52,387 bases of DNA from Myxococcales bacterium (GTDB lineage Bacteria; Myxococcota; UBA727; VGSZ01), in NCBI GenBank assembly GCA_023248635.1, contig JAHFED010000039.1:1-52387 (forward strand), written 5' to 3'. The stretch's first letter is position 1. Each line of letters begins with the position of its first letter. A program made the position numbers and the translations under genes. Shown here piece after piece: positions 10,114 to 11,511 of the stretch. The notes beneath the pieces were generated by a model. It was not told the origin of the DNA. It saw only the letters and a list, made by a program, of their open reading frames with translations, and did not search any database.

Positions 10114-11511
10114 ATGAGTCCAGGTCTCGTTCGAACCCTTCGCATTCGCAGCAAGCGACGCCCCGGCGGCCTCGGGACCCTGGCCTCGGCCTTCGGCGAC
10201 GCCGGCGCCTCGCTGGGTGAGATCCAGACGATTCGGATCGGACATAATACTACATTGCGAGATTTTCAGCTTCTTCTGGATGATGAAGACCACCTCGCGG
10301 CCGTGCTCGACGCGATCAAGCCCCTCGAAGGCTGCGAGGTCGTCGAAGTCATCGACACCGTCGAACGCTTGCACCGCGGCGGCAAGATCAGGATGCGTTC
10401 CCGCGTGGCGTTCAGCGGCGTGAGCGATCTCTCCGCAGCCACCCTCCCGGGCATGAAGCAGGTGGCCCAGGCCGTCGCCGACGATCCCAGCCGGGTGACG
10501 CTCTACTCCGCAGTGGCCCGCACCGTCGCCGTCGTCACCGATGGATCGGGCGTGACCGGCTTGAACCAGGTGGAGCCGGCCGCCGCCCTGCCCGTCGTCG
10601 AAGCGAAGTGCGCGCTCTTGGCCCATTTCGCCGGACTCTCGGGCCTGCCCCTGTGCCTCGACATCGACACCGAGGATCGCTTCGTCGAGACCCTGGTGGC
10701 CTTGGCGCCCTCCTATGGAGCCATCGTCGTCGAGAGCGTATCGGCGCCGCGCGGACCGCGGGTGGCGCAGCGGCTGGCCGAACGTCTGCGAATTCCGATC
10801 TTTCACGAAGGGGCTGACGGGCCGGCCATCGTCGGCCTGGCGACCATCATCAACGCAGTCCGTTTCGTAGGCCGCAGCTTCGGCGACGTCGTCATCGGCC
10901 AGATCGGCTTGGGCACAGCCGGGGGCGCCATCGCACGGCTGGTGATGAAGCACCAAGGCAAGCCCGTGCTCGGCGAGGACTTTCACCCCGGTTCCGTGTC
11001 TCGCCACGTGGCCCAGGGCGGCAGGGCCTCGAGCATCGAAGAGATCATGAGCGCCTGCGACGTCGTCGTCATGAACACCGGCGCACCGGGGCTTATCAAG
11101 CCGAGCCAGGTGCGCGAAGGACAGGTCATCCTCGCGCTCTCGGAACCGCGGCCCGAGATCGAGCCCTTCGACGCCCTGCTGGCCGGCGCCGCCTTCGCCG
11201 CCGACGGGCGGGCCATCTCGACGGCGTCCGCCTTCCCCGGCGTGCTGCTGGGCTCCTTGGCGGTGCAGGCGAGCACCATTGACGACGGGATGCGCATCGC
11301 CGCGGCCCTGGCGATGGCCGGGCTTGCCGAAGGACACGACCTGGTGCCAGGCCCTTTACAGCCGGGCATTCACGCCGAGATCGCAGCCGCCGTGGCCCGC
11401 GCCGCCGTGCAAAGAGGCGTGGCCCGCGTCGTCGTCGACAACGCGCTGCTGGTGGCCGCCGTCTTTCAGGAGCTCATCGCCGACGAGCGCTTGCTGCCCC
11501 TGCGCGATTGA
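10114..11511 (+). CDS. Malic-enzyme-like protein with an ACT-like N-terminal domain and altered metal site
   Basis: This 465-residue protein has two parts. Residues 1-85 resemble an ACT domain (GGLGTLASAFGDAGASLGEI, then a paired-strand pattern), a small-molecule sensor often fused to malic enzymes. Residues 90-465 follow malic enzymes of the MaeB type: TVAVVTDGSGVTGL, ALPVVEAKCALLAHFAG (the catalytic Lys is kept), and a Rossmann segment IGQIGLGTAGGAIARLV. Two metal-binding motifs are not kept. The usual GINLED reads AIVVES, and the usual HDDQxGTA reads HEGADGPA. The family decarboxylates malate to pyruvate with NAD(P). Given these changes, the activity here may differ or be lost, leaving a regulatory or other role. 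It is the first gene of the microcompartment-type operon; the vertex gene starts 33 bases after its stop. Confidence 0.75.
   Translation: MSPGLVRTLRIRSKRRPGGLGTLASAFGDAGASLGEIQTIRIGHNTTLRDFQLLLDDEDHLAAVLDAIKPLEGCEVVEVIDTVERLHRGGKIRMRSRVAFSGVSDLSAATLPGMKQVAQAVADDPSRVTLYSAVARTVAVVTDGSGVTGLNQVEPAAALPVVEAKCALLAHFAGLSGLPLCLDIDTEDRFVETLVALAPSYGAIVVESVSAPRGPRVAQRLAERLRIPIFHEGADGPAIVGLATIINAVRFVGRSFGDVVIGQIGLGTAGGAIARLVMKHQGKPVLGEDFHPGSVSRHVAQGGRASSIEEIMSACDVVVMNTGAPGLIKPSQVREGQVILALSEPRPEIEPFDALLAGAAFAADGRAISTASAFPGVLLGSLAVQASTIDDGMRIAAALAMAGLAEGHDLVPGPLQPGIHAEIAAAVARAAVQRGVARVVVDNALLVAAVFQELIADERLLPLRD

What the first reader, a model, noticed from the sequence alone, without database searches (positions are those of the whole stretch)
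10114..11511. Malic-enzyme-like protein with both metal-binding motifs replaced
Seen: AIVVES where MaeB-like proteins have GINLED, and HEGADGPA where they have HDDQxGTA, while the Rossmann motif and catalytic-Lys segment stay. An ACT-like domain is at the N-terminus. Known: these acidic residues bind the divalent metal needed for decarboxylation. Inference: the protein may be a sensor or an enzyme for a different hydroxy acid.
Basis: partly seen in the sequence, partly recalled or inferred. Interest (0 to 1): 0.6.

Follow-up and report, generated by a model that had tools for sequence, protein, structure and literature searches.

The report
Malic-enzyme relative stripped of its catalysis
A small class of little-studied bacteria carries a relative of malic enzyme whose metal- and malate-binding residues are gone while the parts that should bind NAD and a second small molecule are kept, so it probably senses rather than decarboxylates.

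Summary
The ORF at 10114-11511 is as described: an ACT domain fused to a malic-enzyme (ME) fold, with AIVVES and HEGADGPA where relatives have xIxLED and HDDQHGTA. It is not a sequencing oddity. All seven sequences found in the window's GTDB class (four families) form one clade (SH-aLRT 100) inside the widespread ACT-malic enzymes. All seven lost metal ligand Asp208, cofactor/substrate Asn344 and Asn370. The other catalytic residues (Tyr110, Glu207, Asp232, Asp233, even Lys165 in one family) eroded later and differently in separate lineages. The 80 other ACT-malic enzymes sampled keep the three metal ligands wherever the column is present. Rossmann invariants, the beta-2 Asp and entangled-dimer residues stay. 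Constraint has inverted: in ordinary ACT-MEs the ACT domain varies most (28% identity) and the catalytic domain least (57%); in this clade it is 49% and 39%. The gene is under purifying selection. Best reading: a non-decarboxylating, NAD(H)-binding, ACT-regulated pseudoenzyme (0.55). Rival: a metal-independent dehydrogenase for another substrate (0.3). The acidic ligands were not moved in any clade-wide way. The downstream microcompartment vertex protein and aldolase genes are a local neighbour only. Nothing has been tested biochemically.

The parts
10114..11511 (+). Whole gene: ACT + malic-enzyme-like protein, 465 aa
   Evidence: start set by ortholog alignment
10126..10356 (+). ACT domain, residues 5-81
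   Evidence: Pfam ACT 25 bits, ACT_4; beta-alpha-beta-beta-alpha-beta in the model
10375..10884 (+). ME N-terminal (substrate/metal) domain, residues 88-257; 10 of 42 ACT-ME invariants kept in all 7
10441..10443 (+). Thr110, column of the catalytic Tyr of YTPGV (EhME Tyr65)
   Evidence: PMC11944484
10606..10608 (+). Lys165, column of the catalytic Lys (EhME Lys120); Arg in family f2
   Evidence: PMC11944484
10720..10737 (+). AIVVES: metal-ligand motif 1, Asp208 lost in all 7 clade members, Glu207 kept here
10804..10827 (+). HEGADGPA: metal-ligand motif 2, Asp232 to Glu and Asp233 to Gly; clade-invariant Asp235
10885..11148 (+). Rossmann part, residues 258-345; GLGTAG and Asp289 invariant
   Evidence: model match to NAD complex 2dvm
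11143..11145 (+). Glu344, column of the SNP/ANP asparagine that contacts nicotinamide ribose
   Evidence: PMC11944484
11218..11223 (+). Ser369-Thr370, column of the NN pair of malic enzymes
11515..11943 (+). Neighbour, not part of the finding: EutN/CcmL microcompartment vertex protein
   Evidence: Pfam EutN_CcmL 73.7 bits; not beside this gene in relatives
11940..12605 (+). Neighbour, not part of the finding: class II aldolase
   Evidence: Pfam Aldolase_II 132.7 bits; pairs with EutN in relatives

Best explanation
The protein descends from an ACT-regulated, NAD-type malic enzyme that has given up malate decarboxylation. It still folds as the intertwined malic-enzyme dimer, still binds NAD(H) in the Rossmann groove, and still carries the ACT domain, so it most likely works as an NAD(H)- and small-molecule-responsive regulatory or scaffold protein. 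Shown by sequence: loss of metal and malate residues, one origin, retention of fold and dinucleotide motifs, purifying selection, and constraint moved from the catalytic domain to the ACT and Rossmann parts. Inferred: that it does not decarboxylate, that it binds NAD(H), that it dimerises, that the ACT domain binds a ligand, and that the output is regulatory. The partner is unknown.
For: All 7 clade members lack Asp208, Asn344, Asn370, and 80 other ACT-MEs have them wherever the column is present. After that first loss the rest of the site eroded independently: Tyr110 lost in f2 and again in f1; Asp233 lost in f2 and in the window's genus; Lys165 to Arg in f2 (topology). A re-tuned active site would be expected to stay fixed instead. 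Kept in all 7: Gly265, Gly267, Gly270, Asp289, Thr322, plus Lys91 and Glu163, which match EhME Lys46 and Glu118 of the intertwined dimer (PMC11944484). Constraint inversion: ACT 49% vs ME-N 39% in the clade, 28% vs 57% in identity-matched ACT-MEs; no canonical pair of 2956 reaches the clade's mean difference. dN 0.24, dS 0.83 against the same-genus ortholog. In three genomes an ordinary malic enzyme coexists (G003, G005, G006), so this gene is not needed as one there. Model pLDDT 94, Z 46 to the NAD complex of P. horikoshii malic enzyme.
Against: Clade-specific invariant charged residues (Arg136, Arg213, Arg216, Asp235) lie in the former catalytic domain, which suggests a ligand there and possibly new chemistry. 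Lys165 is kept in five of seven. Asn344, which contacts the nicotinamide ribose, is lost, so NAD binding may be changed. No conserved partner gene points to a regulatory output. dS is close to saturation in a GC-rich genome.
Confidence: 0.55

Rival explanations
1. A working NAD-dependent enzyme that uses no metal and acts on another substrate, for example a different hydroxy or amino acid, with arginines holding the carboxylate or phosphate in place of the metal.
For: Arg136, Arg213, Arg216 and Asp235 are invariant in the clade and not in ACT-MEs; NAD motifs and, in five of seven, Lys165 are kept; some dehydrogenase profiles (2-Hacid_dh_C, NAD_binding_2) match weakly.
Against: The presumed acid and base (Tyr110, Lys165) and the surrounding pocket differ between sister families, which a shared reaction should not allow. 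Arg213 opens a helix and Arg216 sits in its first turn; whether they face the cleft was not determined.
Confidence: 0.3
2. Still a malic or malolactic enzyme, with the acidic ligands supplied from other positions.
For: In the window copy Glu207, Glu232 and Asp235 are all acidic and Lys165 is present. No other malic enzyme was found in this genome.
Against: In family f2 the columns of the three ligands read T-G-S and A-S-A; Asn344 and Asn370 are gone everywhere.
Confidence: 0.08
3. A decaying gene without function.
For: The ME-N domain evolves fast in this clade; no match in G001 of the same genus.
Against: Open in all seven genomes, dN/dS about 0.29, strong ACT and Rossmann conservation across four families. 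G001 is in about 1270 contigs, so its lack is weak evidence.
Confidence: 0.04

Closest known systems
ACT-domain NAD-type malic enzymes (intact; Bacillota, Chloroflexota, Acidobacteriota, Myxococcota and others)
   Same: Same domain order ACT + malic + Malic_M, about 35-45% identity over the whole length, same Rossmann motif GLG(A/T)AG, same dimer residues
   Different: They keep Tyr, Lys, Glu-Asp, Asp-Asp, SNP and NN; the clade does not. Their ACT domain is variable, the clade's is conserved
P. horikoshii malic enzyme PH1275 (1ww8, NAD complex 2dvm)
   Same: Fold: Z 46, rmsd 2.1 over 376 residues; NAD-binding part
   Different: No ACT domain; full metal site NLED/HDDQQGTA
E. histolytica malic enzyme (3nv9; PMC11944484), used for residue roles
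   Same: Short prokaryotic-type fold with intertwined dimer; Lys46 and Glu118 counterparts present
   Different: Metal ligands Glu168, Asp169, Asp194 and triad Tyr65, Lys120, Asp193 present there, mostly lost here
MaeB hybrid malic enzymes (6zng, 9kru)
   Same: ME domain regulated by an extra small-molecule domain
   Different: Regulator is a C-terminal phosphotransacetylase-like domain (acetyl-CoA), catalysis intact

Membership tests
Malic enzyme (catalytic, decarboxylating or malolactic) | Metal ligands Glu-Asp ... Asp (EhME 168, 169, 194) | tested here: not met
   Asp208 absent in 7 of 7; Asp233 absent in 4 of 7; Glu207 kept as Glu in 2
Malic enzyme (catalytic, decarboxylating or malolactic) | Catalytic Tyr (YTPGV) and Lys | tested here: not met
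   Tyr in 2 of 7 and Thr in the window; Lys in 5 of 7, present in the window
Malic enzyme (catalytic, decarboxylating or malolactic) | Asparagines at SNP/ANP and NN | tested here: not met
   Asn344 and Asn370 absent in 7 of 7; Asn369 in 1 of 7
Malic enzyme (catalytic, decarboxylating or malolactic) | Malate turnover | not testable with these tools
   needs an assay
Malic-enzyme fold superfamily (homology) | Sequence and fold match over both ME domains | tested here: met
   1ww8 E 6e-56; Z 46; Pfam malic and Malic_M over cut-off
ACT-malic enzyme lineage (homology) | N-terminal ACT domain and placement in the ACT-ME tree | tested here: met
   the Pfam ACT score is just under its cut-off in the window
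Dinucleotide-binding Rossmann proteins | GxGxxG and acidic residue ending beta-2 | tested here: met
   GLGTAG and Asp289 invariant in 7 of 7; actual NAD binding not tested
Bacterial microcompartment cargo | Conserved linkage to shell genes | tested here: not met
   EutN/aldolase adjacent only in the window's genome; gene present in f2 genomes that have no EutN

The most novel reading that the evidence does not exclude
A malic-enzyme pseudoenzyme family that has become a dual sensor, reading NAD(H) redox state in the old cofactor groove and a second metabolite in the ACT domain, fixed across one bacterial class.
Probability: 0.35. Interest if true: 0.7.

Novelty: new variant of a known kind. 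Interest (0 to 1): 0.48.

Why it matters
The malic-enzyme catalytic site is very strongly kept. A clade in which that site is dismantled in visible steps while the cofactor and ACT parts are held gives a natural series for how a metabolic enzyme may turn into a regulator. It is also a warning for annotation: such genes are liable to be named malic enzyme and counted as NAD(P)H sources in metabolic models. In the window's genome it is the only malic-enzyme homologue found, so that error would invent a pathway step.

Tried and rejected
Microcompartment link: the ME-like gene is followed within 3 bases by a EutN vertex gene that overlaps a class II aldolase, and MaeB sits in EUT1 microcompartment loci (PMC4207490). 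Rejected, because in relatives the EutN-aldolase pair travels with other vertex genes elsewhere, the same-genus relative has other neighbours, and f2 genomes carry the gene without any EutN. Partner search by synteny: five loci in four families share TPR lipoproteins nearby, four of them an outer-membrane beta-barrel gene, three FeoB, and in G003, G004 and G007 a small lipoprotein sits immediately upstream; none gives a clear function and the window's genus has lost this setting. First alignment used minus-strand loci unflipped and is void; redone. Literature: three searches for inactive or ACT-type malic enzymes gave no report of this; the library lacks most subscription journals.

Full report
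What is there. The ORF at 10114-11511 (+) codes for 465 residues. The longer ORF start at 10018 given by the ORF list is not supported: the same-genus ortholog starts at the residue matching 10114. Residues 5-81 form an ACT domain, 88-257 the malic-enzyme N-terminal domain (ME-N), 258-345 the Rossmann part and 346-440 the C-terminal part. Pfam malic and Malic_M pass their cut-offs, ACT is just below. NCBIfam gives no model over its cut-off. Most solved relatives are malic enzymes, best P. horikoshii 1ww8 at 6e-56. A model built on 39 sequences has mean pLDDT 94 and matches the NAD complex 2dvm at Z 46, rmsd 2.1 over 376 residues.

Residue roles. The E. histolytica malic enzyme paper (PMC11944484) gives metal ligands Glu168, Asp169, Asp194; triad Tyr65, Lys120, Asp193; the ANP motif contacting nicotinamide ribose; and inter-monomer contacts of Lys46 and Glu118. 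By motif alignment these are columns 207, 208, 233; 110, 165, 232; 344; 91 and 163 in the window protein. The offsets are self-consistent (45 for the Tyr, Lys and dimer residues, 39 for the metal motifs). The role of the NN pair (369-370) in binding substrate is from my general knowledge of malic enzymes.

The comparison. A scan of 84,980 species genomes gave 80 loci for relatives. Seventy-seven of these were read, besides two that are copies of clade members (L054 = G002, L055 = G005); together with three from the window's phylum they make 80 ordinary ACT-malic enzymes. YTPGV, the Lys, ED, the second Asp of HDD, SNP and NN are unchanged in all of them where the column is present (two rows are truncated, one row has HND). 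The seven sequences of the window's class differ: ligand columns 207-208-233 read E-S-G (window and G002), D-S-D (G003), D-A-D (G006, G005), T-G-S (G004), A-S-A (G007). Asp208, Asn344 and Asn370 are lost in 7 of 7. The class holds 16 genomes in this collection; the gene is in all four larger-genome families, absent from the eight small genomes (0.3-1.8 Mb) and not found in G001, a MAG in about 1270 contigs. Across 195 genomes of the phylum the seven score 731-782 bits and the next, an intact ACT-ME, 422.

One origin, then erosion. The seven are one clade with SH-aLRT 100, also when 30 positions (the lost positions plus Lys165) are left out of the tree. Which intact ACT-ME is its sister is unsure. 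On the tree, f2 (G004, G007) branches first, then (G006, G005) and (G003, (window, G002)). By parsimony the ancestor had already lost Asp208, Asn344, Asn370, and the neighbours Cys214, Phe215 and Thr237, while keeping Tyr110 and Asp233. These two were then lost separately in f2 and within f1, and f2 replaced the catalytic Lys by Arg. This is inference from seven sequences.

Constraint has moved. Of 42 positions invariant in ACT-MEs within ME-N, 10 are kept in all seven; of 16 in the Rossmann part, 12; of 20 in the C-terminal part, 14. For pairs matched at 40-55% overall identity, ordinary ACT-MEs have 28% identity in ACT and 57% in ME-N; the clade has 49% and 39%. Over all pairs the ACT minus ME-N difference averages -0.29 in 2956 canonical pairs (maximum -0.01) and +0.08 in 21 clade pairs; 39 canonical pairs reach the clade's lowest value and none its mean. 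The pairs are not independent, so this is a description rather than a test. dN 0.24 and dS 0.83 against G002 indicate purifying selection, with dS probably underestimated.

Were the ligands moved? Newly invariant residues of the clade include Arg136, Arg213, Arg216, Asp235, His291, His298 and Asn321. Asp235 is the only new acid near the site; it starts the helix 235-251 in the model, as an N-cap would. In G004 the metal-ligand columns hold no acid at all. So a moved metal site is not supported for the clade. I could not measure geometry, so for the window copy alone it stays open at low probability.

Metabolic setting. No other malic enzyme was found in the window's genome (96.7% complete), G001, G002, G004 or G007; G003 and G005 have SfcA-type ones and G006 a MaeB-type one. 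Thus the protein coexists with a real malic enzyme in three genomes.

Neighbourhood. In the window it is followed by a microcompartment vertex protein and a class II aldolase, and preceded by a small cysteine-rich ORF that is conserved in G002. The vertex-aldolase pair belongs with the class's microcompartment genes, which lie elsewhere in other genomes. In the other five genomes the gene lies near TPR lipoproteins, mostly with an outer-membrane beta-barrel gene and in three with FeoB. No partner emerges.

Verdict. The most likely mechanism is loss of decarboxylation and survival as an NAD(H)- and ACT-ligand-responsive protein (0.55); a metal-free enzyme on another substrate is the main rival (0.3). 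It is a new variant of a known kind; I found no report of it in the papers searched. No activity, binding or output has been measured.

Noticed in passing
11515-12605: EutN-type vertex protein overlapping a class II aldolase. The own genome has further microcompartment genes on contigs C5, C9, C94 and C96, and six of the 16 class genomes have three vertex genes each, reminiscent of Haliangium.
   Followed up: partly
9652-9966: Small ORF with two CxxC pairs (zinc-ribbon-like), 59% identical to the ORF upstream of the same gene in L041.
   Followed up: partly
12388-13089 and 14434-15327: Lipoprotein-like ORFs with long Gly-Glu repeats after the N-terminal region.
   Followed up: no
13086-14522 (-): Lysine 2,3-aminomutase-like radical SAM protein.
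   Followed up: no
L042, L045, L046 (just upstream of the ME-like gene): A small lipoprotein gene without a Pfam match sits immediately upstream of the ME-like gene in three genomes of two families and overlaps its start in L045 and L046.
   Followed up: partly
G008-G015 (family f5): The class includes a family with genomes of 0.3-1.8 Mb, probably host-associated, that lack this gene.
   Followed up: no
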